Part shown: piece by piece, positions 4,587 through 29,745 of the stretch
Layout of the letters: each line of letters begins with the position of its first letter
Position numbering within the stretch: the first letter of the stretch is position 1
Source of the DNA: Micromonospora sp. NBC_01813
GTDB lineage: Bacteria > Actinomycetota > Actinomycetes > Mycobacteriales > Micromonosporaceae
DNA length: 64,000 nucleotides
Direction: 5' to 3'
NCBI RefSeq assembly: GCF_035917335.1
Contig: NZ_CP109067.1
Coordinates: 4,897,001 to 4,961,000, forward strand
Notes under the pieces: generated by a model
Seen by the model: only the letters and a program-made list of their open reading frames with translations
The model's database searches: none
Told to the model about the DNA's origin: nothing
Made by a program: the position numbers and the translations under genes

Positions 4587-4614
4587 ACACACCTGTTTCT
4601 TGTGACGTCGCCGC

Positions 4615-15978: not shown

Positions 15979-16029
15979 GGTTCGGGTACCCTCCGGCAGC
16001 GGAATGCTGGTGCGAGATTTCGGGCGTAT

Positions 16030-16719: not shown

Positions 16720-17362
16720 CGCGCCTCACGCTCCAGTACTAACGTCGAGCATCAAAGTCATCCTGCCATACCCCCAAGGATCGACACCGGCCAGAAAGCT
16801 GATCTTGCCCTGGCCCGCGACCTACGGCGATTGTCGGAAGGTTGCGGAGGGTGGAGCGCATCTGTAGGCGATACGGATATATGCGATGGGTCATAGCTAG
16901 GCAGCAACCCAGGAGGTCACGCGGAGTGGTTCCGACATGACGATATGTCATGCCCAGGAGGCCGATGACCAGAGGCGAGATGGAGGAACGCTCGCACGCC
17001 TGACTATCGGGCCGACCGGGACAGGTCGGATTGAGTAACGATCCGGCCTGTCCCGGATAGCGCTGTTGAGCCCTATTTGTGCGAGTCGTCTCGGCTGGTA
17101 ACGATGAAGCCGGTACCGGGCAGGGGTCCAGGTGGTGCTCCGTGGGTGCTCGGACGTCGGGGAACTGACACGGACGTACAGGGATGCAGCCGGATTTGAG
17201 GGTCGCAGCGAGGGTGCCCAACGAATCGAGAGGTGCCGATGCATTGGCCCGCAGGGCGCGGACCTGCAGGGATGCGGCGGGACGCGGGGGGACTGGGCTG
17301 GATACGGCCGGACAAATTTTCTGATAGAGTGGAAAATGGAGGGGACTAAAATCCACTTCGGA
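16720..17362. other. Intergenic stretch before the attachment site
   Basis: About 640 bases with no supported gene. It holds a strong stem-loop (17018-17054) and, just before the repeat, an AT-richer segment (17325-17360). The 5' half of a tRNA expected ahead of the tRNA-like 3' end is absent. Confidence 0.5.
17018..17054. terminator. Stem-loop, possible terminator
   Basis: Arms 17018-17031 (GGGACAGGTCGGAT) and 17041-17054 (ATCCGGCCTGTCCC) pair at 13 of 14 positions with a 9-base loop. No U-run follows. It lies left of the attachment site with no gene clearly reading into it. Confidence 0.45.
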
Positions 17363-17409
17363 CTACGGATCAGAAGGTTAGGGGTTCGAGTCCCTTCGGG
17401 CGCGCCACA
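17363..17409 (+). repeat. Attachment site copy 1 (tRNA-Arg 3' end)
   Basis: The sequence folds as the 3' part of a tRNA: anticodon loop CTACGGA (anticodon ACG, Arg), variable loop, T-arm GGGGTTCGAGTCCC and an acceptor strand ending GGGCGCGCCA. It is identical to 27445-27491 over 47 bp and to 29953-29995 over 43 bp. The 5' half of the tRNA is not present upstream. Confidence 0.85.
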
Positions 17410-17413
17410 CGAA

Positions 17414-17449
17414 AGCCCGGTGAGCTGCCAGAACGGCAGGCACCGGGCT
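17414..17449. terminator. Hairpin after attachment site 1
   Basis: AGCCCGGTG (17414-17422) pairs with CACCGGGCT (17441-17449), with an inner GCTGCC/GGCAG helix, followed by CTTCT. This is the usual form of a terminator just after a tRNA. Confidence 0.65.
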
Positions 17450-17500
17450 CTTCTACGTCCAGGGGAAGATCAACATGTAGCAACGGATGTAGCGCCAGAG

Positions 17501-18709
17501 TCATCCCGCGCTCCCGAACTTCCGAAGGACCGCGTCCATCCGGTCCGCAGTGCCGCGCCGCACCGACTCGAAGACGTGCACGTACAGGTCACTGGTGGTG
17601 GCCTGCCGGGTATGCCGAAGCATGGACTGAACCTCCTTGATCGATGCGCCTTCCGCGAATGCGAGCGACGCCGCAGCGTGCCGAAGGTCGTGCAGCCGGA
17701 CCCCCTCGACGCCCGCCCGGGCGCACACCGCCGACCACGACCGGTTGACGTTGCGCGGTTCCAGGGCGGTCCCGATCGACGTGGTGAAGACCAGATCCGG
17801 ATCCACCCACACCCGCGCGGCCAACCGGTCCGCAGCCTGGTTCCGCCGGTGCGCGCGGAGCATCTCGACCAGTGCCGCCGGCAGGCTCAGCGTGGCCCGA
17901 GACTCCGCCGTCTTCAGGTCCTTCTCGACCAGACGGCCGCGCCGCTTGCCGGTCTCCGGGTCCATCTCACCCCGCACCCGCCGCATCTGCTTGCGGAGCG
18001 CCGTGGTCGACGCGTCCAGGTCGGTCAGGCTCCACCTCATCGCGAGCGCCTCACCACGGCGGGGGCCGAACGCCAGCATCGTGAACCAGAGGACCCGGTG
18101 CCGGTCGGCCACCATCTCCGCGAAGACCCTCCCCATCTCCTCCTCGGTGCGCTGTTCCGCCGGACGACTCTGCCCAGACGGCAGCCGCACCAGGGTGGCC
18201 ACGTTGCGCCCGATGATCTCGTCTCGCATCGCGTCGTTGAGCGCCCGTCGCAGAGCCGCGTGTGCCATGCCGACCGTGCGGGGCGAGAACGGCTTGCCGC
18301 GCGAGCTGATCGCCTTCAACCGCTCCCGCTGCCACGCCCGCACGTCGTCGGCAACCAGAGCGTTGATCTTCACCTTGGCCAGGAACGTCGGCAGTAGGTG
18401 GCCCTCCACCATCTGCCGGTAGCTGTCGGCCGTGCTCTCGTCCAGGTGCCCGGCCTCGACTTCGCCCGCGATCCGGACGTCAAGCCAGCGGACCAGGTAG
18501 GCGCCAAGCGTCGGCGTACGACCGAGCGGGACCGGCCGGCCCGCCTCGATCTCGGCGAGCAGAGCACGCCGGGCCTTGAGCGCCGCCTTCTCGTCAACCC
18601 CGTAGACGACCTTGCGTCGCCCGGACGGCAGCGTGACGGCAGCGCACCACTTCCCGTCCGACTCGCGTCGGTACACCGATCCTTCGCCGCTCGGCGCGCG
18701 CCCGGTCAT
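17501..18709 (-). CDS. int: Tyrosine site-specific integrase
   Basis: 402 aa from the ATG at 18709, which overlaps the upstream stop by ATGA. The N-terminal GSVYRRESDGKWCAAVTLPSG is an arm-binding/AP2-like segment; residues 65-165 form the SAM-like core-binding domain. Catalytic residues are visible: Arg217 in GPRRGE, His340 and Arg343 in LHDLRHAAAS, His366 in LRHTRQ and Tyr376 in SDLYVH. All are present, so it should be active. It sits next to the left attachment repeat and reads toward it. It probably integrates and, with the excisionase at 19384, excises the element at tRNA-Arg. Confidence 0.95.
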   Translation of the reverse strand: MTGRAPSGEGSVYRRESDGKWCAAVTLPSGRRKVVYGVDEKAALKARRALLAEIEAGRPVPLGRTPTLGAYLVRWLDVRIAGEVEAGHLDESTADSYRQMVEGHLLPTFLAKVKINALVADDVRAWQRERLKAISSRGKPFSPRTVGMAHAALRRALNDAMRDEIIGRNVATLVRLPSGQSRPAEQRTEEEMGRVFAEMVADRHRVLWFTMLAFGPRRGEALAMRWSLTDLDASTTALRKQMRRVRGEMDPETGKRRGRLVEKDLKTAESRATLSLPAALVEMLRAHRRNQAADRLAARVWVDPDLVFTTSIGTALEPRNVNRSWSAVCARAGVEGVRLHDLRHAAASLAFAEGASIKEVQSMLRHTRQATTSDLYVHVFESVRRGTADRMDAVLRKFGSAG

Positions 18710-19227
18710 CCGGCGCGCCCCTTCCTGGCCGGCCCGAGCAGGCCGAGCCGGCGCGCGTCGCGGACCCACCGATGCACCGTCGTCACCGGCACACCCGCCT
18801 CATCCGCGAGCGCCTTGGCGGGCGTCTTCGTCACCTTCACCGCCTCGTTGTAGGCGTCGGCGACGCGACGGGAGAACCCCTCCGGGTCGCTGCCGTCCGG
18901 CCGAGTAAGAGGCGGTCTCGGTTCCGCGTTCTCCGGTGGCCGGTTCACTGGGATCGGGAACGCGTCGATCGCGGCTTCCAGCGCCCGACACTCCTCGCGG
19001 TCGTCCGCCGGCCAACCGCTCTGCGCCAGCTGCCCGGCGAACGCGACCTGAGACCTGAGACCGATGCTCCGCAGCGTGGCTGCGGTGATGTCGGGTGCGC
19101 TGATGACCAGGCGGTCGACGACCACCCGCCCGTCGACGACCTTCGCGTGTGTCAGTAGGTGCGGGACGTCGGCGGTGAACCCCCATAGCCACCATCCGTC
19201 CGCGCCTGTTCGTTGCTGTTCAGACAT
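18706..19227 (-). CDS. Element-encoded helix-turn-helix protein upstream of integrase
   Basis: 173 aa. Residues 1-95 are an uncharacterised domain with a WWLWGFTADVPHLL start and the VISAPDITAATLRSIG segment. Residues 118-165 (FSRRVADAYNEAVKVTKTPAKALADEAGVPVTTVHRWVRDARRLG) read as a DNA-binding helix-turn-helix. The gene overlaps the integrase start by 4 bases and so is co-translated with it. It probably controls integrase expression or the shared operators just upstream (19251-19360). No named family is recognised. Confidence 0.75.
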   Translation of the reverse strand: MSEQQRTGADGWWLWGFTADVPHLLTHAKVVDGRVVVDRLVISAPDITAATLRSIGLRSQVAFAGQLAQSGWPADDREECRALEAAIDAFPIPVNRPPENAEPRPPLTRPDGSDPEGFSRRVADAYNEAVKVTKTPAKALADEAGVPVTTVHRWVRDARRLGLLGPARKGRAG

Positions 19228-19250
19228 CTCCCCATGATGCGACGGGCCGA

Positions 19251-19360
19251 CCTACGCGCGCAAGTGCGACCATGCAACCGCGAACATCCGCGTACTTGCT
19301 CACCACCCCCCGGACGTGCTAAACCGATCATGGCAGCCGCGTACCTGCGCGGACCTACGC
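19251..19360. promoter_or_regulatory. Cluster of operator-like motifs between integrase and excisionase operons
   Basis: Three related sites share the core GTACTTGCGCGGA or its complement: around 19254-19268 (GCGCAAGTGCG), 19288-19301 (CCGCGTACTTGCTC) and 19338-19354 (CCGCGTACCTGCGCGGA, itself palindromic). The same motif recurs as an inverted pair at 27357-27388, ahead of the rightmost operon. Position between divergent promoters suggests binding by an element-encoded repressor. Confidence 0.55.
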
Positions 19361-19383
19361 ACTCACCGAGGGAGAGCACCCCC

Positions 19384-19578
19384 ATGGAGTCAACCCCGCT
19401 CCTCGTAACCACAGTGGAGGCAGCGCAACGCCTCGGTTGCGGCCGAACCACCGTCTACGAACTGATCGCACGCGGCGAGCTGGAAACCGTCACGATCGGT
19501 CGGCTCCGTCGCGTCCCGGTCGACGCAATCGCCGACTACGTCAACCGACTGCGCGAGCAGGCAAAGGCCGCTGCCTGA
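19384..19578 (+). CDS. xis: Excisionase-family DNA-binding protein
   Basis: 64 aa from the ATG at 19384. LLVTTVEAAQRLGCGRTTVYELIARGELETVTIGRLRRVPVDAIADYVNRL is a MerR-like winged helix of the HTH_17/excisionase family. Small proteins of this type direct integrase toward excision and often activate the rep operon. It is the first gene of a rightward operon and its stop overlaps the next start (TGATG). A longer start near 19330 has no support. Confidence 0.9.
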   Translation: MESTPLLVTTVEAAQRLGCGRTTVYELIARGELETVTIGRLRRVPVDAIADYVNRLREQAKAAA

Positions 19579-19880
19579 TGTACCTCTACCGCGCATACGA
19601 CCGCCGTGGCCGACTGCTCTACATCGGCATGACGAGCTGCATCTACGAACGGGTCAAGAGCCACCGGCGTACGTCGAGCTGGTATCGCGACGTCCAGTCG
19701 TGGGCCGTCACCGACCTGGGGCGCATGTGCCCTTGGGACTCGGCTCACGCCGAGGAGATTCGGGCTATCCGGGCCGAAGACCCGACCTACAACGTGCAGC
19801 ACAGCCCCCGCTGGCGCAATCTCGGCCGGGCAGGTGGATGGGCACCCATCGACCAGACCAGGACGGTCGGTGCCCCGTGA
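19578..19880 (+). CDS. GIY-YIG-like nuclease-domain protein
   Basis: 100 aa. The N-terminal pattern MYLYRAYDRRGRLLYIGMTS, then IYERVKSHRRTSSWYRDV, matches the GIY-YIG fold (first strand with Tyr, then YIG and a downstream Arg/His), with EEIRAIRAEDPTYNVQHSP completing the domain. Such domains nick or cut DNA. It is translationally coupled to the excisionase (TGATG) and to the next gene (GTGA). In this setting a role in element replication or competitor cleavage is possible but unproven. Confidence 0.75.
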   Translation: MYLYRAYDRRGRLLYIGMTSCIYERVKSHRRTSSWYRDVQSWAVTDLGRMCPWDSAHAEEIRAIRAEDPTYNVQHSPRWRNLGRAGGWAPIDQTRTVGAP

Positions 19881-20080
19881 ACGCCGAAGGCCGGCCCGAA
19901 GACCGGCCAACCGACGTCCGTCACGACGAGCCGAGCGTAACCGACCAGACCGACGACGAACGCACCCAACAGCGGGCCGAAGTGCTCGACCGGCTACGGC
20001 GACCGGTATCGAACCGACACCGGCGGGTCGAAGTCGACTCCGGTCCGGGGTACAGCGTCGTCCGCTGGGTCAAGACGTGA
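19877..20080 (+). CDS. Small charged protein between GIY-YIG and rep genes
   Basis: 67 aa from the GTG at 19877, which overlaps the upstream stop (GTGA). Its own stop overlaps the next GTG start, so it is embedded in the coupled operon. It is hydrophilic and rich in Arg, Asp and Glu (RPEDRPTDVRHDEPS, then EVLDRLRRPVSNRHRRVEVD). No family is recognised. The overlap pattern at both ends is the main support for a real gene. Confidence 0.6.
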   Translation: MNAEGRPEDRPTDVRHDEPSVTDQTDDERTQQRAEVLDRLRRPVSNRHRRVEVDSGPGYSVVRWVKT

Positions 20081-21585
20081 CCGCCGGCACCGAGGAGCTC
20101 GCCCCCGTCGTCGCGTCCGAACGTGCCGTACTCGGCACGCTGATGACCGAGCTCGAACCCACCGCCGGCACCGACGACCTGAACCCCGACGACCTGTACC
20201 TCGACCGGCACCGCGTCATCCTCGACGCCATCCGCAGGGCCAGGGCCGCCGGGGAGCCCGCCGACATCGCCGCCATCGGCATCCGGCTGGCCGAATCCGG
20301 CCGCTTCGACCGGGCCGGCGGCGGCAGGTACCTGACCGATCTGGTCGAAGCGGCCATCACCCCGGGGAGCCTCGCCTACCACGTCGGGGTGATCGCCAAG
20401 GCCGCGCAGCGCCGCCGCCGGATCGCCGCGCACGAGCGGATGGGCCAGATCGTCGCCGACGACGACGCGTGGACAGCCCGGGGTGCCGAGCTGCTCGCCG
20501 AACTCGAGTCCGGCAGCCGACCTGCCGAGGCACAGGACCGACCCCGACCAAGCTGGAAGCCGGTCGACATCGGGCCAGTGCTGGCCGGCACCTACCAGCC
20601 ACCCCGGCCGACCGTCGGCCGTCGAGACGACGGCGTCGGCATGTTCTACCCGGGCCGGATGCACACCATCGCCAGCGAAAGCGAGGCCGGTAAGACCTGG
20701 CTTGCCCTGCTCGCCGTGCTCTCCGAGCTGGAATCCGGCAACGCCGTGGTGTACCTCGACTTCGAGGACGACGAAGGCGGCATCGTGGGTCGGCTGCTCG
20801 CCATGCAGGCCAAGCCCGAACACCTGCGCGAGCGGTTCGCGTACATCAAGCCTGACGACGCGATCGGCGTACTGGGCAACCGAGAAGACCTGCGCCAGGT
20901 CCTCGGCGACCTCCGGCCGACGCTCGCGGTACTCGACGGCGTGACCGAGGCAATGAGCCTGCACGGCCTGGAGATGAAGGACAACACCGACGTAGCCGCG
21001 TTCGGAAAGCTACTCCCCCGGTGGATCGCCGACCAGGGCCCGGCAACCGTCGCACTCGACCACGTCACGAAGAGCGCCGAAGGCCGAGGCCGGTACGCCA
21101 TCGGCGGCGTGCACAAGCTGAACGGGCTCAACGGTGCCGGCTACGTACTGGAGAACCGGCGCCCGTTCGGCGTTGGCCTGACCGGCAGGTCCACGGTCTA
21201 CATCACGAAGGACCGGCCAGCCCAGCTACGCCGACACGCCCAGCCCGGCCGCGAAGGTCTGTTCTGGTTCGGCGACCTGGTCGTCACCTCCCACGAACAG
21301 GGGTTCGTCGAACCAGCACTGACACCGCCCACGTCCAACCCCGACACCGGACTTCGGCCGACCAGCGTGATGACGAAGGTCTCGCGGATCCTCGCCGACA
21401 ACCCCGGCGGACTGTCGAAGAACGCCATCGAAACGATGGCCGGCGGCAAGGCCAGCATCGTGCGGGCCGCGCTCGAACTACTGGTGAACGAGGGGTTCGT
21501 ACTCCAGAGCAAGCAAGGCGCGTCGCTGATCCATACCCACATCCGTCCATTCACGATCGAGGCGCTGGAAGAGCCCCGTGGATAA
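20077..21585 (+). CDS. RepA-like replicative helicase/primase-loader protein
   Basis: 502 aa from the GTG at 20077 (GTGA overlap). Residues 10-125 resemble the DnaB N-terminal domain (VVASERAVLGTLMTE through LTDLVEAAITPGSLAYHV). Residues 180-390 are a RecA-type ATPase (AAA_25): Walker A SESEAGKTW (Ser200-Trp208), Walker B PTLAVLDGV, and a later ATVALDHVTKS strand with RYAIGG. Residues 420-500 form a winged helix (ILADNPGGLSKNAIETMAGG). Proteins of this kind replicate excised elements. Iteron-like repeats and a palindrome follow directly at 21588-21686, a likely origin. Fusion of both domains in one chain is notable. Confidence 0.85.
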   Translation: MTAGTEELAPVVASERAVLGTLMTELEPTAGTDDLNPDDLYLDRHRVILDAIRRARAAGEPADIAAIGIRLAESGRFDRAGGGRYLTDLVEAAITPGSLAYHVGVIAKAAQRRRRIAAHERMGQIVADDDAWTARGAELLAELESGSRPAEAQDRPRPSWKPVDIGPVLAGTYQPPRPTVGRRDDGVGMFYPGRMHTIASESEAGKTWLALLAVLSELESGNAVVYLDFEDDEGGIVGRLLAMQAKPEHLRERFAYIKPDDAIGVLGNREDLRQVLGDLRPTLAVLDGVTEAMSLHGLEMKDNTDVAAFGKLLPRWIADQGPATVALDHVTKSAEGRGRYAIGGVHKLNGLNGAGYVLENRRPFGVGLTGRSTVYITKDRPAQLRRHAQPGREGLFWFGDLVVTSHEQGFVEPALTPPTSNPDTGLRPTSVMTKVSRILADNPGGLSKNAIETMAGGKASIVRAALELLVNEGFVLQSKQGASLIHTHIRPFTIEALEEPRG

Positions 21586-21587
21586 GA

Positions 21588-21686
21588 CCTCGTCCCCTCG
21601 TCCCAACCTCGTCCCAACCTCGTCCCGGACGAACTCCCGGACCTCGTCCCCTCGTCCCCCTGTATAGGGACGAGGACGAGGGACGA
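21588..21686. repeat. Iteron-like direct repeats with palindrome (candidate origin)
   Basis: Six copies of CCTCGTCCC in 71 bases (21588, 21596, 21607, 21618, 21642 and 21650), then TGTATA and the inverted copy GGGACGAGG (21667-21675) with further GGGACGA at 21680. The last direct copies and the inverted copy can form a long hairpin with a small AT-rich loop. It lies directly downstream of the helicase gene. Confidence 0.65.
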
Positions 21687-21754
21687 ACCTCCGGGCGACC
21701 CTGCCAACCATCACCAGGGACGAACCCCGGCGACCCAACCCGGAAGGAACCCCC

Positions 21755-22366
21755 ATGCCCCTCGACCAGCCAGAGATCAACCACATCGACACCCGCACCC
21801 ACATCGAACACGGCCTACTCGACACCCACGAACGAAACGCCATCATCGACGCCGCCCGAGGAACCGGCGGCGAAGAACTCGAAGCCTTCGGCGGAAACCT
21901 CACCGCCCACCCCGTCGACGACCCCTACGAACTGTTCGGCGACCACATCGTCTACCGCCTCTGCAACGCCGTCCGCCACGCCAACGAAGCCATCTTCGGC
22001 TGGAACATCCCCCTCGACGTCTTCCGCTTCGGCGTCAACCACTACCGACCCAGCACCACACCCAACAACGAAGGCGACTCCATGGGCGTCCACGTCGACG
22101 ACGAACGACGCGAAGACTTCCCCTGGCACGTCGCCCACCGAGGCATCTCCATGAGCGTGCCGCTACGCCAGTCACCCGAAGGCGGACAGCTACGCCTACT
22201 CACCAACGCCGACACCGACGAATGGACAATCCCCCACCTCAACCCCGGCGACGCCATCATGTTCGGCTCATCCACCGACCACGAGGTCACCCCGGTGGCA
22301 GGCGGGGAACGCTGGGTGCTGCTGTTCTGGGCGTACACCAACCACTTCCGGAACGGCATCAGGTAG
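21755..22366 (+). CDS. 2OG-Fe(II) oxygenase-like protein
   Basis: 203 aa with a good ribosome binding site (GGAAGGA, 21741-21747). The double-stranded beta-helix core shows the iron-binding HVDD (in MGVHVDDERRED), then LRQSPEGGQLRLL, then the distal His in STDHEVTP followed ten residues later by Arg in GGERWVLLFWA, which would bind 2-oxoglutarate. This fits the prolyl-4-hydroxylase-like superfamily. Substrate is unknown. Carriage on an integrative element makes nucleic-acid or host-protein hydroxylation worth considering, but that is inference. All key residues appear present. Confidence 0.8.
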   Translation: MPLDQPEINHIDTRTHIEHGLLDTHERNAIIDAARGTGGEELEAFGGNLTAHPVDDPYELFGDHIVYRLCNAVRHANEAIFGWNIPLDVFRFGVNHYRPSTTPNNEGDSMGVHVDDERREDFPWHVAHRGISMSVPLRQSPEGGQLRLLTNADTDEWTIPHLNPGDAIMFGSSTDHEVTPVAGGERWVLLFWAYTNHFRNGIR

Positions 22367-22481
22367 CTCTCACCACCATGAGTAGTGATGCAGCTACTTA
22401 GAGTCCCCGATTTTCCCTTATAGCAGGTATAGGACACCCGCAGTACTGTCCGATTTCCCTCTCCCCTGGCGCGACGCCGGA

Positions 22482-22576
22482 GGATCGTCGGCCTTTGCTG
22501 GCGGTTACCGAGGATCCTTCGGCGAACTGGTCGCCAGACCGAAGGATCGTCGGCGGGTGCCGGTAGGCTGCCTACC
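22482..22576. promoter_or_regulatory. Repeated AGGATC motifs and a perfect palindrome at the next start codon
   Basis: AGGATC-containing repeats occur near 22482, 22510 and 22543. GATCCTTCGG and CCGAAGGATC there form an inverted pair about 18 bases apart. A perfect 15-bp palindrome GGTAGGCTGCCTACC (22562-22576) abuts the ATG at 22577, where a repressor or a hairpin would block translation or a leaderless start. Confidence 0.5.
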
Positions 22577-22867
22577 ATGCGGTTGAACATGGTGACGGAC
22601 GAACCGGCGATACGTCGGGCGCGTGCTGCCGGTGCGAGCGTGGTCGAGGCGGTGGCGTTGGCCCGGCTTCACGGTGACGACCTGGCGGCCGTCGACCGGG
22701 CGGTGATCGGGTTGGCGTCGGCGAGCACCGACCCGCCGACGCCGGAGACGGAGCCTCGCCCGGTGTGGGAGGTGCTGGCGGACATGCACCGGCAGCGGGG
22801 TGCTGGTCGACGGGCGGGCCCGCCGGGTGGGTTCGGTGGCCGGGTCGACGGGCGGGGCGGGTCGTGA
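22577..22867 (+). CDS. Small hypothetical protein
   Basis: 96 aa. An N-terminal helical part (AIRRARAAGASVVEAVALARLHGDDLAAVDRAVIGLA) could be a degenerate helix-turn-helix; a Gly/Arg-rich tail follows. Its stop overlaps the next start (GTGA). An ATG four codons in (22589) is an alternative, which would leave the palindrome at 22562-22576 upstream as an untranslated leader. Not recognised as a family. Confidence 0.55.
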   Translation: MRLNMVTDEPAIRRARAAGASVVEAVALARLHGDDLAAVDRAVIGLASASTDPPTPETEPRPVWEVLADMHRQRGAGRRAGPPGGFGGRVDGRGGS

Positions 22868-24033
22868 CGGCTCCGGAGTTCGACGCGTTGCGGGCCCGCC
22901 GCCGCGAGGTGGCGCGGCAGCTGCGCGCTGAGGGTCTGCCGGTGCGGCAGATCGCCGCACGTCTGGGTGTGAGTCATCCGACGGTGATCGAGGATCTGAG
23001 AGAGGTACCTGCCATGACGACGACATCCGCGACGACGACCGATGCGGTTCCGGTGCCGCCGCGATTCGATGAGCGGAACGCGCGGCTGACCATGCTGCTC
23101 GACGCCCTCGACGGGCTGGGCCTGGGTGGGATGCTCGGCGAGTCCCGGGCGCTGCTGGCCCGCGCGGCGGACGTCGAGCGTGCCGCCGCCGAGGGGCATT
23201 CCCGGGCGCGGTCGGAGGTCGACGGGCTGGTGTCGATGGTGGCGGACGGGACGTTGCCGCTCGACCAGGCCGCGGTGAAGGCCGCGGCGTTGGCGCCGTG
23301 GGAGCCGTGGGTGCCGCGGCCGGTCCGGGGTCGGGACAACCGGCGTACGCCGGCGTGGTCGGTGGCGGATCGGGTCGCCGGGGAGTTGCGGGAACGGGCC
23401 CGGCTGGCCGCGAAGGCGGCCGGGTTGGACGTGCACGGCCGGCTGTCCCAGTTGGCTGCTGGCGCGGTGAAACGGGGTGTGGAGGCGGGTCGGCACCTGG
23501 TCGACGTTCCGGCGGTTCTGGAGGCGTTGAAGCCGCCGAAGGTGCGGCCGGGTCTGATCCAGGCTGGTCCGCAGGCGTCGGACCCGTTCGCGGGACGCCC
23601 GCGCGCGAAGCTGCCGGCGCGTGTGCGGAGCGTCGACGACATCCAGGGCAACGGGCCGTTGATGGGCTGGTGGGCTGAGGCGACGTCGGCGACGGAGGAA
23701 CTGACCCGGCTTCACGACGTCGCCGGGCTGCTTCACGCGGTCGCGGGCGGGGCGTCGTCGGTGTTCGCCGTCGACCCGGACAGCGACAAGCTGGTAAGGG
23801 TGAACCGGGACTTGCCGCCGCAGGTGCATCTTGCGGTGGTCGACGCGCTGGGGTGGGGGCCGGGTCTGCACATGGCGTTGAAGGCGGTGCCGTCGCGTTC
23901 GTTCGCGGGTCGGGTGTGGGATGCGATCGCGGGTGCCGCCGGTCGGCCGTCGACGGATGGTGTCGAGGTTGTGAACGGGGTTCGGCAGCCTGCCGGTTGG
24001 TCGCCGCCGGTGTCGCCAAGGGTTGGGGCGTAA
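22864..24033 (+). CDS. Element protein with N-terminal helix-turn-helix
   Basis: 389 aa from the GTG at 22864. Residues 5-45 (RARRREVARQLRAEGLPVRQIAARLGVSHPTVIEDL) are a clear helix-turn-helix of the transposase/sigma-like type. The rest is helical and basic with no recognised domain; LDGLGLGGMLGESRALLARAADVERAA and RLAAKAAGLDVHGRLSQLA are the most regular parts. An ATG lies after the HTH, so a short form is possible. It is coupled to the preceding small gene and followed by a strong terminator. A regulatory or partition role is possible. Confidence 0.65.
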   Translation: MTAPEFDALRARRREVARQLRAEGLPVRQIAARLGVSHPTVIEDLREVPAMTTTSATTTDAVPVPPRFDERNARLTMLLDALDGLGLGGMLGESRALLARAADVERAAAEGHSRARSEVDGLVSMVADGTLPLDQAAVKAAALAPWEPWVPRPVRGRDNRRTPAWSVADRVAGELRERARLAAKAAGLDVHGRLSQLAAGAVKRGVEAGRHLVDVPAVLEALKPPKVRPGLIQAGPQASDPFAGRPRAKLPARVRSVDDIQGNGPLMGWWAEATSATEELTRLHDVAGLLHAVAGGASSVFAVDPDSDKLVRVNRDLPPQVHLAVVDALGWGPGLHMALKAVPSRSFAGRVWDAIAGAAGRPSTDGVEVVNGVRQPAGWSPPVSPRVGA

Positions 24034-24061
24034 GGGATTCAGCCCGGTTGCCCCGGTGTGC

Positions 24062-24094
24062 AGCGACCCCCGACCACGCCGGTCGGGGGTCGCT
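24062..24094. terminator. Strong bidirectional terminator hairpin
   Basis: AGCGACCCCCGACC (24062-24075) and GGTCGGGGGTCGCT (24081-24094) pair perfectly over 14 bp around a 5-base loop. It separates two convergent genes ending at 24033 and 24139. Confidence 0.8.
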
Positions 24095-24138
24095 CGTCGT
24101 GTGGGTGGGTTCGGCGGCCGGTGCCGTACCCGGGCGGG

Positions 24139-24408
24139 TCAGTCGTTCTGCCAGGGCCGGTTGCGGCTGATCCACTCGGCGACCTCGGACCGCAACCAGA
24201 TCGGGCCCTGGCCCAGCGTCGCGACCGGTTCGGGGAAGCCCTTCGCCCGGCTGATCACCCACGCGCGTTGCTTCGACATCGGGCGCCCGGGCGGGCCCAG
24301 CATGACGCGAAGCTCGGCAGCGCCGACCAGGTCGGCGGGATCGACTCCCACACTCGCTGACCGTAGGCAGGGACCGAGGTTGTTGACCGGGGTCTGTAGT
24401 TGCATCAC
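24139..24408 (-). CDS. AlpA/HTH_17-like DNA-binding protein
   Basis: 89 aa. VDPADLVGAAELRVMLG, then SKQRAWVISRAKGFPEP, GQGPIWLRSEVAEWISRNRP, is the AlpA-type winged helix used by phage and element regulators. It differs from the excisionase at 19384, so the element carries two small wHTH proteins. It is transcribed leftward from the centre, divergent from the small gene at 24450. It may regulate that intergenic region or the transfer-side genes. Confidence 0.75.
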   Translation of the reverse strand: MMQLQTPVNNLGPCLRSASVGVDPADLVGAAELRVMLGPPGRPMSKQRAWVISRAKGFPEPVATLGQGPIWLRSEVAEWISRNRPWQND

Positions 24409-24449
24409 CCTGTAGGGGTCACGTCACGACATCAGAGAGTGAGACCCCC

Positions 24450-24710
24450 ATGACGTCGATGGACGACAGCAGGTGGCTCGACACCGGCGCCGGGCCCGGC
24501 TACGGCGAGCAGACCGCCACCATCCGGCACTGCGGCCGCGACTGGCCCTCCGACCCGGCCGACGAGGAGCCCATCCCGGCGGACGCGGAGGTGACCTTCA
24601 CGTCGACCTGGACGTGGTCCGCGCTCGTCGACGAGTTCGGCGAGACCGAGGCAACGGCGATCCTCGCCGACCGGCTGATGGGCAAGCGGCCGGACCAGGG
24701 CAACGCCTGA
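24450..24710 (+). CDS. Small acidic hypothetical protein
   Basis: 86 aa. It is acidic with a Trp-rich core (EVTFTSTWTWSALVDEFGETEATAILADRLMG). No family is recognised. It is divergent from the AlpA-like gene and ends just before a run of palindromes. G/C-rich third positions support coding. Confidence 0.55.
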   Translation: MTSMDDSRWLDTGAGPGYGEQTATIRHCGRDWPSDPADEEPIPADAEVTFTSTWTWSALVDEFGETEATAILADRLMGKRPDQGNA

Positions 24711-24743
24711 AACCGTTGCGACGTAACGGATCCGGCGAGCAGA

Positions 24744-24827
24744 GATCCCGCACCCAGGTTCGGGATCCGTGAGGCGCTCACGGATTCGGAACCCGGGTTC
24801 CGAATCGCGCAGGCCTCTGCGCGATCA
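24744..24827. repeat. Run of four consecutive palindromes
   Basis: GATCCCG/CGGGATC (24744-24767), ATCCGTGAG/CTCACGGAT (24765-24785), a perfect 24-bp palindrome at 24783-24806 centred on CCCGGG, and ATCGCGCAG/CTGCGCGAT (24804-24825) follow and overlap each other. They lie between a small gene and the convergent DUF2637 gene. Too complex for a simple terminator; a transfer, single-strand-origin or recombination site is possible. Confidence 0.6.
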
Positions 24828-24929
24828 GGTGTCGTCGAGGGGCACGGCAGCAACGGGGATCCTCGGATCCCCGCCGGCAGGACAGGCGACAGCCGGCCGA
24901 CACCGAAGTGCCGGCCGGCCCACCACCGC

Positions 24930-25709
24930 CTACCGGGCCGACGAACCCACCAGCACCGGGCCACGCCCGCCCGTACCGGCGTCGTCCGGCTCGTCGGCGA
25001 GTAGCCGCGCCAACGCCGTAGCCCGGTCCGTGGACACCGCACAGCCGGCCGCACGCACCTGCCGGGCCAACTCGTCACGGGTGACCCGCCGGCCGGCAGA
25101 GCGGATCTCAGCGGCCACCGTGCGGGCAACCCGCATCACGTCGTCCTCAGGTCCGGGTCCGTCCTGACCGTCGTCCTGACCGTCCCGGTACCCGTCGCCG
25201 ACCAGGGAGGTCGACCCGGTCGACGCCGACCGGCGCCCGTCGGCGATCGGACGACCGGACCTGGTCAGCACCTCGACCGCGAGTAGGAAACTGACTGCCG
25301 GCACAGCAGCGACCAGCCGGGCCGTTGGGGTCGGCTCCGCGCTGGCGATGTTCGCCGCCACCGTGGCGAGCACACCGAACACCAACGCGACCCGGGCCGA
25401 CCACCGCGGCCGCCGGTGGTGCCGCTTGTCGTCGACCAGGGCCATCGTGCCGACGACGATCAGGCCGTCAACGGCGAGGGGCAGCAGCGCGGCGACGCTG
25501 GCCGGCTCGCCGGCGGACCGGGCCACAGCGGCGATGTGCATCCACGACGCGTACCCGGCGACCAGGGCGACGACAACAGCCGCTGCCCTCGACGCGAGGG
25601 TGGTCACCGGGGCGGCCGGCCGGTGGGCGACCTGCCACGCTACGGCGCCGATGGTGACACCGACCAGGCCGGCGCCGAACGCGGCGAGCAGTACAAGGGA
25701 ATGGGGCAT
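24930..25709 (-). CDS. DUF2637 membrane protein (SpdB-like)
   Basis: 259 aa. Residues 1-150 hold about four membrane helices with the DUF2637 pattern YASWMHIAAVARSAGEPASVAALLPLAVDGLIVVGTMAL. Residues 150-190 are a charged linker. The C-terminal part (VMRVARTVAAEIRSAGRRVTRDELARQVRAAG) is a wHTH-like segment. DUF2637/Spd proteins are typical of actinobacterial conjugative elements and linked to plasmid spread in mycelia. Here they appear without the TraB/FtsK pump that normally accompanies them. Confidence 0.8.
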   Translation of the reverse strand: MPHSLVLLAAFGAGLVGVTIGAVAWQVAHRPAAPVTTLASRAAAVVVALVAGYASWMHIAAVARSAGEPASVAALLPLAVDGLIVVGTMALVDDKRHHRRPRWSARVALVFGVLATVAANIASAEPTPTARLVAAVPAVSFLLAVEVLTRSGRPIADGRRSASTGSTSLVGDGYRDGQDDGQDGPGPEDDVMRVARTVAAEIRSAGRRVTRDELARQVRAAGCAVSTDRATALARLLADEPDDAGTGGRGPVLVGSSAR

Positions 25710-25778
25710 CGGGACATCCGTTCTGGGGAGTGTGGGGCCCGGCCCTCGACGGGGCCGGGCCCTGGGAAGTGGGGCGGG

Positions 25779-26105
25779 TCAGCGCAGGAGCTGCGGGCGG
25801 CGGCTCGACGGCCGGCCGAACGCGGTACCGCCGTCGAGCTGCCGGCGCGCGTCCTCGACAACCTCGATACGCGGCACCGACACGGGGATGTGATTGCGGC
25901 GGACGACGACGATCACGTCCGCCAGGCCGTCGAGCAGCAGCCGGAACACGGTCTGCCAGCGGTCACCGTCGGGGTTGTCGATGATCACCGACGCCAGGTC
26001 GTAGCCCTGCCGGGTGCACCAGTCGATGCCCTGTTCCTGCGCCCGTGCCAGGTCGCCGCCGGTCTGCAGGTCACGCAGGTACAGGCAGGCGCGTAGGGCG
26101 GTCAC
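25779..26105 (-). CDS. Resolvase-N-like mini-protein
   Basis: 108 aa from the GTG at 26105 (GTGA overlap with the upstream gene). RACLYLRDLQTGGDLARAQEQGIDWCTRQGYD, then VFRLLLDGLADVIVVV, resembles the start of serine-recombinase catalytic domains. However, the nucleophilic serine position reads TGG and the large C-terminal part is absent, so recombinase activity is unlikely. It may be a regulatory or dead domain. It belongs to the leftward operon that begins at 27249. Confidence 0.6.
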   Translation of the reverse strand: MTALRACLYLRDLQTGGDLARAQEQGIDWCTRQGYDLASVIIDNPDGDRWQTVFRLLLDGLADVIVVVRRNHIPVSVPRIEVVEDARRQLDGGTAFGRPSSRRPQLLR

Positions 26106-26398
26106 CGGTCGGCTCCGACCTGGTCGAGCAGGTCGACGCCGTTGAGCAGCGCGGCGGCCAGCTGGCAGGCCTCGGCCTTGGTCAGGTCGTCCTTGACGAA
26201 CACCGCGAGCTCGACGCCGTCGAGGGCACCCGTCGCCAGGTCCTGGCAGGCGTACAGCAGCACGGTCGCCTTGTCCTCGCCGTCGCGGTCGATGTCGAGC
26301 AGGGTCCGCGAGTGGTCCCGCGAGCCCATCACCATGTCGTGGTCGGTGATCGGCCCGTGGGCGGCGGTGCACCACTCGGGGCACGCCAGCGCGTTCAC
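26102..26398 (-). CDS. DUF6907-domain protein
   Basis: 98 aa from the GTG at 26398. CPEWCTAAHG, HSRTLLDIDRDG and VKDDLTKAEACQLAAALLNGVDLLDQV match the DUF6907 pattern (CxxWC near the start, then two beta strands and a helix). It is paralogous to the C-terminal half of the upstream gene. Starts and stops overlap by GTGA on both sides. Function unknown, but the family is common on actinobacterial integrative elements. Confidence 0.75.
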   Translation of the reverse strand: MNALACPEWCTAAHGPITDHDMVMGSRDHSRTLLDIDRDGEDKATVLLYACQDLATGALDGVELAVFVKDDLTKAEACQLAAALLNGVDLLDQVGADR

Positions 26399-27249
26399 CG
26401 CAGGCCGCCGGTCAGCTGCGACACCAGCGGGCCCGGCACGTCCCGCCGGCCGGGCAGCACACCGTCGAGCAGATCGGCACCGCGCAGCAACGCCGCCGCC
26501 GCCTGCCGCGCCTCGGCAGCCGTCAGGACGTCCTTCGCCTCGACCGACACGGCCGGCGCGTCGTGGTCGACGCCGTCGAGGTCCTCGCACGCCGACACCT
26601 CGACCCTGACCGCCAGCTGGTCGCCGTGGTCGATCCGCAGCAGGGTCCGCGAGTGCAGCCGCGAACCGGTCTCGACGTCGGCCGGTTCCCGCCGGCCGTG
26701 GTCGAGGGTGCACCACAGTGGGCAGCGGCCGCCGTCCTTCGCCGCCTGGTCGTCGCTGCGCCGGGCGGTGCGGTAGCCGAGTTCCATGCCGAGGTTGAAC
26801 ATCGCGAGCACGTCACGGCCGGTGTAGACCTGCCCGGCGTTGTAGACCTTCTCGACCAGCGCCCGGTCAGCGTCGGCCTGGTCGACGGGCACCGGGCCGT
26901 CGAGCGGCGACCAGGCCGGGTCGGTGTCCGTCTGCTCGTCGACGAGCTGGGCCGGCACCTGCCCGGCGGTGGGGGCGGTCAGCGCCACGGCGGTCGGGCC
27001 GGTGTAGTCCATGCCGTCGCCGCAGCGCTTCACCTGGCCCATCGGGGCGGGGCGGTGCGGAATCACGTGCGAGGTGAAGCCGGCGAACGTCAGCGACCAG
27101 GCAGCCGGAACGAGGTGCCCGGCGCACACGTACACCGACGCGTCGAGGTTGCCGTGAGCGTCGGCGGCGGCCTCGATCCGGTGGGCGGCCGGCTCGCCGC
27201 AGCGTGGTAGGTCGTTCGGCAACGGGTTGGGGGTGGGTACGGTGTTCAT
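26395..27249 (-). CDS. DUF6907-containing two-part protein
   Basis: 284 aa. Residues 1-130 contain paired Cys residues (RCGEPAAHRIEA, YVCAGHL, KRCGDGMDYTGP), suggesting a small metal site. Residues 130-170 include RALVEKVYNAGQVYTGRDVLAMFNLGMELGYRTA. Residues 180-275 (CPLWCTLDHG to AAALLRGADLLDGV) are a DUF6907 domain. It is the first gene of a leftward operon whose promoter region carries the inverted operator at 27357-27388. The protein is repeated in miniature by the next gene, a local duplication. Confidence 0.75.
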   Translation of the reverse strand: MNTVPTPNPLPNDLPRCGEPAAHRIEAAADAHGNLDASVYVCAGHLVPAAWSLTFAGFTSHVIPHRPAPMGQVKRCGDGMDYTGPTAVALTAPTAGQVPAQLVDEQTDTDPAWSPLDGPVPVDQADADRALVEKVYNAGQVYTGRDVLAMFNLGMELGYRTARRSDDQAAKDGGRCPLWCTLDHGRREPADVETGSRLHSRTLLRIDHGDQLAVRVEVSACEDLDGVDHDAPAVSVEAKDVLTAAEARQAAAALLRGADLLDGVLPGRRDVPGPLVSQLTGGLR

Positions 27250-27356
27250 GGGTCAGGACTCGCTTCCTGATCAAGGCTCCCGGCTGGTGCTCGCAACACC
27301 GCCGGGGGCCGTCCAATGTAAACGGCCGTGTAGCAGAACTTGTAGCGACACGACAA

Positions 27357-27388
27357 CGTCCGCGCAAGTACGCTAACTTACGCGGACG
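27357..27388. promoter_or_regulatory. Inverted operator upstream of the DUF6907 operon
   Basis: CGTCCGCGCAAGT (27357-27369) and ACTTACGCGGACG (27376-27388) pair with one mismatch around six bases. The half-site matches the motifs at 19251-19360, pointing to one regulator for both ends of the element. Confidence 0.6.
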
Positions 27389-27444
27389 GTCGCTGACAAG
27401 GGTTTACGGCATCTGGCGAACGTTGGCGGACGCCATGCCCCGAC

Positions 27445-27491
27445 CTACGGATCAGAAGGTTAGGGGTTCGAGTCCCTTCGGGCGCGCCACA
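27445..27491 (+). repeat. Attachment site copy 2 (tRNA-Arg 3' end)
   Basis: Identical over 47 bp to the copy at 17363. It marks the right end of the 10.1-kb element. The upstream bases do not form the 5' half of a tRNA. Confidence 0.85.
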
Positions 27492-27521
27492 GCCCCCCTG
27501 AACTGCATGTTCAGGGGGGCT
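27491..27521. terminator. Perfect hairpin after attachment site 2
   Basis: AGCCCCCCTGAAC (27491-27503) pairs with GTTCAGGGGGGCT (27509-27521) around five bases, followed by TTCGT. A typical post-tRNA terminator. Confidence 0.75.
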
Positions 27522-27621
27522 TTCGTCTGTCCGGGCGATGGCACAGCGCTCACACAGCATCTTATTCTTCGGATCTGCCGCCGAGCGCTGTAGAGCCGCA
27601 CCCCTCCCCCGGAGCAGACGC

Positions 27622-27784
27622 ATGGACGCGAACGACCTCACGCTCGCCTCGTACGAGCGCCACCTACGGATCAAGCGCCGCAGCCCGCGCACCATCCAGG
27701 GCTACCGCGAGGCCCTGGGCCAGCTGATCGCCCACCACGATGGCGCCGACCTCACCGAGATGACCCGCGCCGAGGTGGAGGCGT
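27622..27784 (+). pseudogene. Tyrosine recombinase, N-terminal fragment cut by an IS
   Basis: From the ATG at 27622, LTLASYERHLRIKRRSPRTIQGYREALGQLIAHH, then LTEMTRAEVEALYL, is the SAM-like N-terminal domain of a XerC/D-type recombinase. About 54 residues remain; coding then passes into the IS terminus at 27785. No catalytic part is found on the other side of the IS. It may have been the integrase of the second element. Confidence 0.75.
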
Positions 27785-28992
27785 TGTACCTGCCGAAAAG
27801 GTCATCCGGGCAGGTCAGGCGGCATGTTCGTATTCGTGGAGGATGCCGCCGAGGCGGTCACGTCGGTGGATGTTCAGGCGGGCGAGACGGTCCGGGTCGG
27901 TGATCGGTTCGGGCAGTGGCGCGAGTGGCCGGACGTTGGAGATGCCCTGATGAGGGCGATGCTCGTTGTAGAAGACCTCGTATTCGCGAAGCGCGTGCCG
28001 CAAGTGCCGCTGGTGGAGGATCAGCGTCCGGTCGAGGAGTTCACGCCGGCAGGTCCGGACCCAGCGTTCCATGATCGCGTTCATCCGGGGTACCCGGACT
28101 CCGCTGAGGACCATGTCGATACCGACGTCGGCGAGGACGGTGTCGAACAGGACCGGGTACTTGCCGTCCCTGTCCCGGATCATGTATTTCACCTGGCAGC
28201 CGGCGTCTTCCAGGTCCATCACCAGGTTGCGTGCGGTCTGGGTCACCCAGGCTGCGGTCGGGTGCGCTGTCACGCCGAGGAGTCGGATGCGGCGGGTGGC
28301 ATGCCCGATGACGGCCAGGACGTAGAGGCGGGTGCCGGTCAGCGTGGTCGTCTCGAAGAAGTCCGCGGCAATGACGGCGTGGGCCTGGGAGCGCAGGAAC
28401 GCCGCCCAGGAGCTGCTGGTGCGCTCGGGTGCCGGATCGACACCCGCCTCTTTCAGGATCTCCCAGACGGTGGACGCGGCGACCTTGACGCCCAGCACGA
28501 GCAGTTCGCCGTGGATACGGCGGTATCCCCAGGCGGGGTTCTCCGAGGCCAGGCGCAGGACCAGCCGGCGGATCGACCGGACGGTTCGTGGCCGCCCGGC
28601 CGGGTGGGGCCGGGAACGGCGGGCGTGCCGGTGGGCGATCAGGTCCCGGTGCCAGCGCAGCACGGTCTCCGGGCGCACCAGCAACCGCAGACGGTTGCGC
28701 ACGGTTCGCGGCAGCGAGTGCAGCAGAGCCGCGAGCCAGGCCCGGTCCGCCGGGGGTGAACCGGACCCGGTCGCCGTGCAGTTGCCGTTCGAGCACCATG
28801 ATCTGGTGCAGCAGGCCGGAGTGTTGGTCACGCCGAGGTACGCCAGTCGGAACAGCACACCCCATCGTCGCGCAGCGCTCGACGTCGACCACTGTCGCGA
28901 TTCAGCCGCCCGAACCCGCGCCGGAGCCGACCGCTCCAGGCTTGCTGATCAACAAGCTGCGACCAGGAGGGATGAGGTTTTCGGCATCCACA
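27785..28992 (-). mobile_element. Insertion sequence of about 1.2 kb (rve-type)
   Basis: Ends TGTACCTGCCGAAAAGG (27785) and, inverted, TGTGGATGCCGAAAACC (ending at 28992) form imperfect terminal repeats that share TGCCGAAAA and CTCATCC-type blocks. The single transposase gene reads leftward. No clear target duplication is seen. Confidence 0.65.
27815..28858 (-). CDS. rve-type (IS3/IS481-like) transposase, probably frameshifted at the N-terminus
   Basis: 347 aa as an open frame. From PADRAWLAALLHSL onward it is a full integrase-core transposase: an HTH region (VLRWHRDLIA, NPAWGYRRIHGEL), then DDE residues in ADFFETTTL, MIRDRDGKY and the ERWVRTCRRELLDR segment, ending in YEVFYNEHRPHQG. The true N-terminal segment (QIMVLERQLHGDRVRFTP) lies in another frame and joins at a run of five C's near 28758. 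Either this copy is broken or frameshifting is programmed. Confidence 0.8.
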   Translation of the reverse strand: MLFRLAYLGVTNTPACCTRSWCSNGNCTATGSGSPPADRAWLAALLHSLPRTVRNRLRLLVRPETVLRWHRDLIAHRHARRSRPHPAGRPRTVRSIRRLVLRLASENPAWGYRRIHGELLVLGVKVAASTVWEILKEAGVDPAPERTSSSWAAFLRSQAHAVIAADFFETTTLTGTRLYVLAVIGHATRRIRLLGVTAHPTAAWVTQTARNLVMDLEDAGCQVKYMIRDRDGKYPVLFDTVLADVGIDMVLSGVRVPRMNAIMERWVRTCRRELLDRTLILHQRHLRHALREYEVFYNEHRPHQGISNVRPLAPLPEPITDPDRLARLNIHRRDRLGGILHEYEHAA

Positions 28993-29092
28993 CACCAGCA
29001 ATCCGCTTCCCGGCGTCCGCTCCCGGCACCTGGCCGCACGCCCACCCTGAGGTGCGTCGATCGTATTGTCTGCCCGTTTCCCGCCGACGCGG

Positions 29093-29449: not shown

Positions 29450-29745
29450 AGGACCCGCCTCCTCCACTCATCCAGGTCCGCGCCAGCCAAGGCACGAACC
29501 CCCATGATCTTGTACGTCCCCGTGCCACCGATCCGGTCACACAACACGGCGATCACCCGGCCGCTGTCGGCCAACCCCATGACGATAAGCAGCAGGTCCC
29601 CGACCACCCGCTCATGACGCAAACCCGACGGTGCATACAACGCCTCGGTCGCCTCACCGACACCGACGTCGTTCCGACGAGCATTGGCCAGGCCCTCGTC
29701 GGTCCACACATACTCGCGTTCCCCCACCCACCGACCGTAACACAT
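29446..29745 (-). CDS. BrnT-like toxin
   Basis: 99 aa from the ATG at 29745. EREYVWTDEGLANARRNDVGVGEATEALY, then GRVIAVLCDR and YKIMGVRALAGADLDEWRRRV, has the layout of BrnT ribonuclease toxins (Trp near the start, GV-x-EA helix, strands, Arg-rich C-terminus). Similarity is moderate; another RelE-superfamily type is possible. It is the first gene of a two-gene operon with the RHH antitoxin. Confidence 0.65.
   Translation of the reverse strand: MCYGRWVGEREYVWTDEGLANARRNDVGVGEATEALYAPSGLRHERVVGDLLLIVMGLADSGRVIAVLCDRIGGTGTYKIMGVRALAGADLDEWRRRVL

What the first reader, a model, noticed from the sequence alone, without database searches (positions are those of the whole stretch)
17363..27491. Compact integrative element with replication but no visible transfer pump
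Integrase, excisionase, RepA-like helicase, iterons and the Spd-like DUF2637 gene fit actinobacterial integrative and conjugative elements, yet no FtsK/TraB translocase or relaxase is encoded between the repeats. Cargo instead includes a GIY-YIG protein, a 2OG oxygenase and a resolvase-like mini-protein. It could be a satellite that depends on a helper element or phage, a class hardly described in actinomycetes.
Basis: partly seen in the sequence, partly recalled or inferred. Interest (0 to 1): 0.75.

Follow-up and report, generated by a model that had tools for sequence, protein, structure and literature searches.

The report
Compact phage-related hitchhiker element
A 10-kb piece of mobile DNA in an actinomycete chromosome carries what it needs to insert, leave and copy itself, but no recognisable machinery to move between cells; its copying module is of phage type, so it probably rides on a helper, perhaps a phage.

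Summary
The observation largely holds. An exact 47-bp repeat (3' part of tRNA-Arg ACG) bounds a 10.1-kb element with tyrosine integrase, excisionase-type protein, GIY-YIG protein, DnaB_N/AAA_25 Rep, iterons, 2OG oxygenase, DUF2637 and DUF6907. No FtsK/TraB, relaxase, terminase or capsid gene was recognised; the 389-aa protein has no FtsK domain. The 'resolvase-like' protein was not confirmed. The repeat has four genomic copies, the intact tRNA lying 140 kb upstream: one unit of a tandem array.

It is not an AICE by published criteria (no Tra; Rep unlike the three AICE types). Rep and iterons are of phage type: its Rep clade holds a full prophage and two compact elements with tape-measure genes but no terminase or head gene recognised. 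The integrase has three relatives at the same tRNA, one with capsid, protease and tape-measure genes. Against this, its DUF2637 is closest (82%) to that of an FtsK element, and one 8-base word is over-represented both here and in a resident AICE.

Best reading: a non-autonomous, phage-lineage integrative element moved in trans, most likely a satellite; a mobilizable AICE derivative or a reduced prophage is not excluded.

The parts
17363..17409 (+). att repeat, left copy (3' part of tRNA-Arg ACG plus a few bases)
   Evidence: identical to 27445-27491; intact tRNA-Arg at G000:C1:4773603-4773676
17476..17493 (+). left arm: two TGTAGC boxes (17476, 17488), probable integrase arm sites
   Evidence: the only four copies in the element are two in each arm, none inverted; alignable in G321 and G170
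17501..18709 (-). tyrosine integrase
   Evidence: PF00589 2.9e-13, phrog_1 4.9e-52; 76-80% identical to integrases at the same tRNA in G321, G170, G140
18706..19227 (-). 173-aa protein with C-terminal HTH, coupled to integrase
   Evidence: kept beside the integrase in G321, G140, G170; only weak HTH matches
19384..19578 (+). excisionase-type HTH protein
   Evidence: TIGR01764 1.6e-13, HTH_17 1.2e-12
19578..19880 (+). GIY-YIG nuclease-like protein
   Evidence: PF01541 8.1e-5, 23.3 bits against cut-off 22.6; phrog_16880 7.1e-13
20077..21585 (+). Rep: DnaB_N plus AAA_25 helicase (frame open from 19834; start at 20077 inferred)
   Evidence: PF00772 4.8e-13, PF13481 1.2e-10; tree; Ka/Ks 0.15-0.38
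21589..21674 (.). iteron array, probable replication origin (CTCGTCCC x6, x1 inverted)
   Evidence: the same word is repeated after rep in G279, G155, G225, G086, L041, L042, L043
21755..22366 (+). 2OG-Fe(II) oxygenase (cargo)
   Evidence: PF13640 2.2e-10
22864..24033 (+). 389-aa HTH protein without relatives found; no FtsK domain
   Evidence: HTH_23 1.3e-5 on the longer ORF; own genome only among 354 genomes, none in phages, IMG/VR or plasmids
24139..24408 (-). 89-aa HTH-like protein
   Evidence: 35-38% identical to small HTH-type proteins of the G155 and G192 loci; no Pfam match at E<=1
24450..24710 (+). 86-aa unknown
   Evidence: no family match; GC3 minus GC2 0.42
24930..25709 (-). DUF2637 membrane protein
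   Evidence: PF10935 5e-14; 82% over 133 aa to G307
25779..26105 (-).
   Evidence: no Pfam match at E<=1, chance-level PDB matches
26102..26398 (-). DUF6907-like, short copy
   Evidence: PF21848 3.2e-4, 21.6 bits, below cut-off 26
26395..27249 (-). DUF6907 protein
   Evidence: PF21848 1.3e-7; relatives in G307, G225, G279, G155
27329..27346 (+). right arm: two TGTAGC boxes (27329, 27341)
   Evidence: about 180 bp of right end 80% alike in G321, 72% in G170
27445..27491 (+). att repeat, right copy

Best explanation
A non-autonomous integrative element of phage lineage, most likely a phage satellite. Shown by sequence: it is bounded by an exact tRNA-Arg att repeat, with paired TGTAGC boxes in both arms that look like integrase arm sites, and encodes an integrase, an excisionase-type protein and a phage-type Rep with an iteron array, but no recognised transfer, packaging, capsid or lysis gene. 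Inferred: Int (with Xis for excision) recombines the repeats to release a circle of about 10.1 kb; Rep acts at the CTCGTCCC iterons and replicates it; transfer between cells is supplied in trans, most likely by packaging in a helper siphophage. The oxygenase and the 389-aa protein are strain-specific cargo of unknown role. The right arm (DUF2637, DUF6907) is a module exchanged among prophages, compact elements and FtsK-bearing elements.
For: Integration module intact and conserved: 47/47-bp repeats, arm boxes kept in G321 and G170, integrase Ka/Ks 0.19 and 0.24. The Rep clade (100/99) holds the window, the full prophage G279 (terminase, portal-protease-capsid fusion, tape measure) and the compact elements G155 and G225, in which the proteins scanned include a tape measure and phrog_9849 but no head or packaging protein, and whose genomes hold no phrog_9 terminase (tree). 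The iteron word is shared with these and with IMG/VR phage contigs; the IMG/VR Rep loci read by eye (5 of 8, of which L045 and L046 are copies of one sequence) have terminase-like genes downstream. Same-integrase relatives are not full phages either: G321 (13.5 kb) has capsid, protease and tape measure; G170 (21.6 kb) a type I RM system. No structural or FtsK remnant inside the element.
Against: No gene of the element itself is phage-structural or a known helper-hijacking gene, and no packaging site was sought or found, so packaging is inferred from relatives only. The one phrog_9 prophage of the same genome shares no recognised gene with it. DUF2637 is closest to that of an element with an FtsK-like protein, and a plasmid with a 50% Rep relative also carries FtsK and DUF2637. 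The word TCGACCAG, clustered four times in the resident pSAM2-type AICE, occurs 12 times in the element against 2.8 expected: a possible sign of TraB-based transfer. The window-G225 pairing has weak SH-aLRT support (91/59). G170's AAA protein is only 29% identical over part of its length (one search lists 30%, 29%).
Confidence: 0.45

Rival explanations
1. A mobilizable element or derivative of an AICE: it lost (or never had) TraB and is moved by the TraB of another AICE in the same cell, which recognises short words on its DNA.
For: The genome holds a pSAM2-type AICE (RepSA 317 bits, FtsK 58 bits, GntR, integrase) and another FtsK-bearing locus at 4.60 Mb (28 bits). In the AICE locus the only 8-mer with four copies within 150 bp is TCGACCAG (in the gene after traB); the element has 12 copies against 2.8 expected from 283 kb of the same genome, and of 371 words of similar background count it alone reaches 12; the AICE has 11 against 2.3. 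The closest DUF2637 relative (G307) has an FtsK-like gene beside it. Plasmid p-XQ-29-C combines a 50% Rep relative, FtsK and DUF2637. Elements lacking tra or rep were noted in Frankia (PMC3218068, passage).
Against: Rep is of phage type, not RepSA/RepAM/Prim-Pol. No FtsK remnant. The 12 TCGACCAG copies are scattered, on both strands and mostly inside genes, not clustered; the word is also denser than background in G225, G170 and G278 loci (0.6-0.7 per kb), so it may reflect codon use of mobile DNA. The clustered words of the 4.60-Mb locus, TGCCGAGA and TCTCGGCA, do not occur in the element, though overlapping words do once or twice.
Confidence: 0.28
2. A reduced prophage: a temperate phage that cleanly lost its structural block and now only persists, excises or replicates locally, without regular transfer.
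For: The Rep/iteron module and the DUF2637/DUF6907 module bracket the structural genes in the full prophage G279; the middle of the window element is taken up by genes without close relatives. 'Remnant prophages' are common in Actinobacteria (PMC10023795, section 6).
Against: No structural remnants; intact ORFs and low Ka/Ks for int and rep; exact att repeats; integrase relatives at the same tRNA also lack full phage gene sets as far as scanned, which suggests a lineage and not one deletion.
Confidence: 0.22
3. A unit that moves only as part of the larger tandem array (four att copies over 153 kb).
For: Four att copies; the segments next to it hold integrase fragments and an IS-like transposase (by eye).
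Against: Complete int-xis pair with both arms inside these limits; the same int/173-aa/xis block directly beside the intact tRNA in three other genera.
Confidence: 0.05

Closest known systems
AICE (pSAM2 type)
   Same: tyrosine integrase, excisionase, tRNA site, own replication, compact size; DUF2637-type membrane protein occurs with FtsK in some relatives
   Different: no FtsK/TraB; Rep is DnaB_N/AAA_25 with iterons, not RepSA, RepAM or Prim-Pol
Phage satellites (PICI-like)
   Same: about 10 kb, integrase, HTH regulators, replication module, no structural genes, helper needed
   Different: no recognised AlpA, TerS, capsid-remodelling or interference gene; no induction or packaging shown
Capsid-forming PICI and Streptomyces MulchRoom/MiniFlayer satellites
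   Same: non-autonomous phage-related DNA; MulchRoom too has a tyrosine integrase (PMC10690885, passage)
   Different: those encode capsid and packaging genes, and Mulch/Flayer satellites lack key replication genes (PMC10690885, abstract); this element is the reverse
Temperate prophage G279 (Micromonosporaceae)
   Same: Rep 72% over DnaB_N plus AAA_25, iteron array, DUF2637 and DUF6907 at the right end
   Different: G279 has terminase, portal-protease-capsid fusion, head-tail adaptor and tape measure between the modules
Compact elements G155, G225 (M. qiuiae), G278
   Same: integrase (serine or tyrosine) and DUF2637 in all three; this Rep and the iteron word in two, DUF6907 found in two; no terminase or capsid recognised in the element
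   Different: carry tape measure and phrog_9849 genes and a conserved block of small genes that the window element lacks

Membership tests
AICE | site-specific recombinase beside att (PMC3218068) | tested here: met
   PF00589 2.9e-13; int about 90 bp from the left repeat
AICE | Rep of RepSA, RepAM (DUF3631) or Prim-Pol type | tested here: not met
   only DnaB and AAA_25 in Rep; none of the three in the ten main ORFs at E<=1
AICE | FtsK/SpoIIIE translocase (Tra) | tested here: not met
Phage satellite (PICI-like) | integrase plus own replication module, no full set of structural genes | tested here: met
Phage satellite (PICI-like) | AlpA-type or Stl-type regulator | tested here: inconclusive
   24139-24408 resembles small HTH-type proteins of related elements but has no Pfam match at E<=1 and no PHROG match at E<=1e-5; a PADLOC model at 1.2e-3
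Phage satellite (PICI-like) | induced and packaged by a helper phage | not testable with these tools
   needs induction and particle sequencing
Capsid-forming PICI | own capsid, portal and terminase genes | tested here: not met
   none recognised in the element; no PF05065 match in the genome (a model that also misses the G279 capsid); the only phrog_9 match lies at 2.81 Mb
Intact temperate phage | terminase, portal, capsid, tail genes | tested here: not met
Integrative mobilizable element with relaxase | relaxase and oriT | tested here: not met
   no relaxase among the ten main ORFs; oriT not searched

The most novel reading that the evidence does not exclude
The element belongs to an undescribed group of actinobacterial phage satellites that, unlike the known Streptomyces satellites, keep a complete phage-type replicon (DnaB_N/AAA_25 Rep plus CTCGTCCC iterons) and shed head and packaging genes, some members keeping only a tape-measure and one further gene; integrases are swapped among tRNA-Arg, comM and glnA sites while the replicon and the DUF2637/DUF6907 arm are retained.
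Probability: 0.3. Interest if true: 0.7.

Novelty: new variant of a known kind. Interest (0 to 1): 0.42.

Why it matters
It would show that the pump-less elements of actinomycetes need not be broken AICEs: some are built on phage replicons and may travel in phage particles. It gives a concrete, testable set (this element, G321, G170, G155, G225, G278) for finding helpers in Micromonosporaceae, where satellite biology is, as far as my searches went, conjecture in print.

Tried and rejected
FtsK in the 389-aa protein: rejected. 'Resolvase-like' protein: not confirmed. Relatives of the 389-aa protein: none in the 353 other family genomes, in phages, plasmids or IMG/VR; BLASTP against two plasmid proteins of similar size gave only chance matches. 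PADLOC on nine element proteins: no convincing defence gene; a 2OG model at 8.9e-11 restates the oxygenase, and two HTH-type matches are weak (1.6e-4, 1.2e-3). Core repeat of the G155 element: only 10 bp shared, not informative. The 229-aa protein of the compact elements: none in IMG/VR and 0 of 190 genomes of the order; that draw held no known positive, so it shows little. It looked to me like a derived head protease, but PHROGs and Pfam gave nothing, so I do not claim it. DUF6907 against G307 gave Ka/Ks 0.93 over 109 codons and DUF2637 0.45: weaker support for selection than for int and rep.

One search does list one, TCGACCAG, with 12 copies in the element; I tested it, report it above, and moved odds from satellite (0.50 to 0.45, novel case 0.33 to 0.30) and reduced prophage (0.23 to 0.22) to the AICE rival (0.22 to 0.28).

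Limits: genes in related loci were called with a simple GC3-based script, not a gene finder, and many were named by eye. G170 was read by eye and with PADLOC (9 ORFs) only. PHROGs saw 8 ORFs of G155, 7 of G225, 2 of G278 (the rest by likeness to G155) and 10 of the G321 locus. G278's genome does hold two phrog_9 terminases, both outside the element. PF05065 misses divergent capsids. Of the 36 loci, L012 overlaps L052, and four are from the own genome.
Full report
Observation. The window lies at 4,897,001-4,961,000 of a single-contig 7.63-Mb genome of a Micromonosporaceae genus (inferred: same-family genomes include the M. qiuiae locus). The 47-bp repeats at 17363 and 27445 are identical and are the 3' part of tRNA-Arg(ACG); ARAGORN finds the intact tRNA at G000:C1:4773603-4773676, beside tRNA-Ser. 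With up to 3 mismatches the 32-base core has four places in the genome, all on one strand. The two copies around the element share CACA at the end, whereas the tRNA copy and the fourth copy (window 29953) both end AAGA. The element is therefore one unit of a tandem array. The core occurs at least twice in 5 of 6 other genomes of the genus with at most one mismatch, and in all 6 with up to two; in some of them the copies lie far apart or on different contigs.

Integration module. Integrase, a 173-aa protein and a small excisionase-type protein form a block. Of 354 family genomes, four match the integrase at E<=1e-60: its own and G321, G170, G140, at 76-80% identity. In all three the integrase lies directly beside tRNA-Arg(ACG) next to tRNA-Ser. 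The right end of the element is alike over about 180 bp in G321 (80%) and G170 (72%). TGTAGC occurs four times in the whole element, twice in each arm, and not at all inverted; the boxes align in G321 and G170. I read them as arm-type integrase sites (inference). Ka/Ks of the integrase is 0.19 and 0.24.

Replication module. Rep combines DnaB_N and AAA_25. Relatives at E<=1e-20 occur in 13 of 354 family genomes, the own genome included; in 14 phage records, best Microcystis phage MinS1 at 43%; in two plasmids; and in eight IMG/VR loci. The word CTCGTCCC is repeated directly after rep with much the same layout in the prophage G279, the compact element G155, the loci L041, L042, L043 and G086, and with another layout in G225; L013 and the Streptomyces plasmid have different but analogous repeated words, as if repeat and Rep changed together (the last is inference). 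In the Rep tree of 21 rows the window groups with G225 (91/59) and these with G279 plus G155 (100/99). Rep Ka/Ks is 0.15 (G225), 0.33 (G155) and 0.38 (G279).

What the relatives are. G279 is a full siphophage-type prophage: terminase, portal-protease-capsid fusion, head-tail adaptor and tape measure, with DUF2637 and DUF6907 at its right end. G155, an insertion of about 16 kb in a gene read as comM, and G225, beside a gene read as glnA, share the Rep; among the proteins scanned only a tape measure (phrog_13339, 5e-122 and 1.3e-135) and phrog_9849 are of phage virion type or unknown phage families. G278 is a third such element with another Rep. Phage-type loci G208, G231, L126 and L127 carry the same tape measure at 65-84% identity, with further genes between it and phrog_9849. 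No phrog_9 terminase was found in the G155, G225, G321 or G170 genomes (0 of these 4; 5 of the 9 genomes searched have one, among them G278, elsewhere in its genome). G321, with the window's own integrase type, has capsid (6.8e-33), head protease (1.2e-14) and tape measure (2.9e-54) in 13.5 kb between att copies. G170 has a type I restriction-modification system within 21.6 kb.

Evidence the other way. G307, of the same genus, has the closest DUF2637 (82% over 133 aa) and carries, in its own element at tRNA-Pro, a DUF3987 protein, a phrog_34159 protein with tape-measure-like stretches, and an FtsK-like protein (PF01580 22.3 bits, under the cut-off of 24; phrog_1358 FtsK-like 3.2e-14) next to DUF2637. 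The 7.9-kb Streptomyces plasmid p-XQ-29-C has Rep (50%), FtsK (46.6 bits) and DUF2637. So parts of this element also circulate with FtsK systems. The same genome holds a complete-looking pSAM2-type AICE, a second FtsK-bearing locus, and a terminase-bearing prophage, so candidate helpers of both kinds are present; of the element's genes only distant integrases matched in these loci. In the AICE locus one 8-mer, TCGACCAG, has four copies within 150 bp. It occurs 12 times in the element against 2.8 expected from 283 kb of the same genome, the highest of 371 words of similar background count, and 11 times in the 8.3-kb AICE against 2.3; in the window it is 25 times against 3.7 in shuffles. The copies in the element are scattered over both strands, and the word is also dense (0.6-0.7 per kb) in G225, G170 and G278 loci. 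It may be a translocase signal or codon use of mobile DNA; I cannot tell which.

Is it a deletion product? Searching 720 ORFs of 36 loci against the element found nothing in 21,714-24,147, where a traB or structural block might have been. The 2OG oxygenase has one phage match, over 34% of its length, and the 389-aa protein has no relative found. No recent deletion is visible; an old, clean one cannot be excluded.

Comparison with print. The AICE survey (PMC3218068, abstract and passages seen) requires Int, Rep of three types and an FtsK-type Tra; [quoted passage not shown] The prophage survey of Actinobacteria (PMC10023795, section 6 read) supposes that many elements under 15 kb may be satellites and says experimental validation lags. 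The Streptomyces Mulch/Flayer satellites (PMC10690885, abstract and passages) encode encapsidation genes and lack key replication genes, the reverse of this element. A review (PMC11389934, passages) lists the known satellite families. Searches for phage satellites with Micromonospora (one paper, the prophage survey), with Actinomycetota (two papers), Micromonosporaceae with PICI (none), satellites with tape measure, Actinobacteria and 'integrative' (none) and DUF2637 (one genome paper, listing only) showed no description of these elements; the library holds open-licence papers only.

Verdict. It is better described as a phage-lineage, non-autonomous integrative element than as an AICE; a satellite is the likeliest single reading (0.45), with a mobilizable AICE derivative (0.28) and a reduced prophage (0.22) as live rivals.

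Noticed in passing
L050:6612 to L051:2900 (G155), L052:3722-18550 (G225, M. qiuiae), L093:4883-20000 (G278): Three compact elements with different integrases and sites share small genes, a 229-aa protein (82-84% alike), a tape measure and phrog_9849, with no terminase or capsid recognised in the element; a candidate satellite family.
   Followed up: partly
L071:5184-18736 (G321): 13.5-kb element at the same tRNA-Arg with capsid, head protease and tape measure but no terminase or portal seen.
   Followed up: partly
L076:1185-8200 (G307): Element at tRNA-Pro combining a tape-measure-like protein, an FtsK-like protein and DUF2637/DUF6907: an apparent phage/AICE mosaic.
   Followed up: partly
window 17363-27491 and L121:5900-14200: The word TCGACCAG is over-represented both in the element (12 against 2.8 expected) and in the resident pSAM2-type AICE (11 against 2.3).
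   Followed up: partly
G000:C1:4773603-4914363 (window 1-17362 and upstream): 140 kb between the intact tRNA-Arg and this element; a stretch after the tRNA is 97% identical to one after the same tRNA in G304. Possibly further accreted elements.
   Followed up: partly
window 27492-29952: Between the 2nd and 3rd att copies in the window: an integrase fragment cut by an IS-like transposase, then two small minus-strand ORFs that look like a toxin-antitoxin pair (by eye).
   Followed up: no
L121:5962-14177 (G000 about 7.316-7.324 Mb): pSAM2-type AICE in the same genome: GntR regulator, TraB/FtsK, membrane protein, RepSA, integrase.
   Followed up: partly
L160/L161 (G000 2.795-2.835 Mb): Siphophage-type prophage with the genome's only phrog_9 terminase match; possible helper.
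   Followed up: partly
L081:3130-3330: Plasmid p-XQ-29-C has CCTGCCC repeats after rep where the window has CTCGTCCC; L013 has CCCCGTCC. Repeat word and Rep may coevolve.
   Followed up: no
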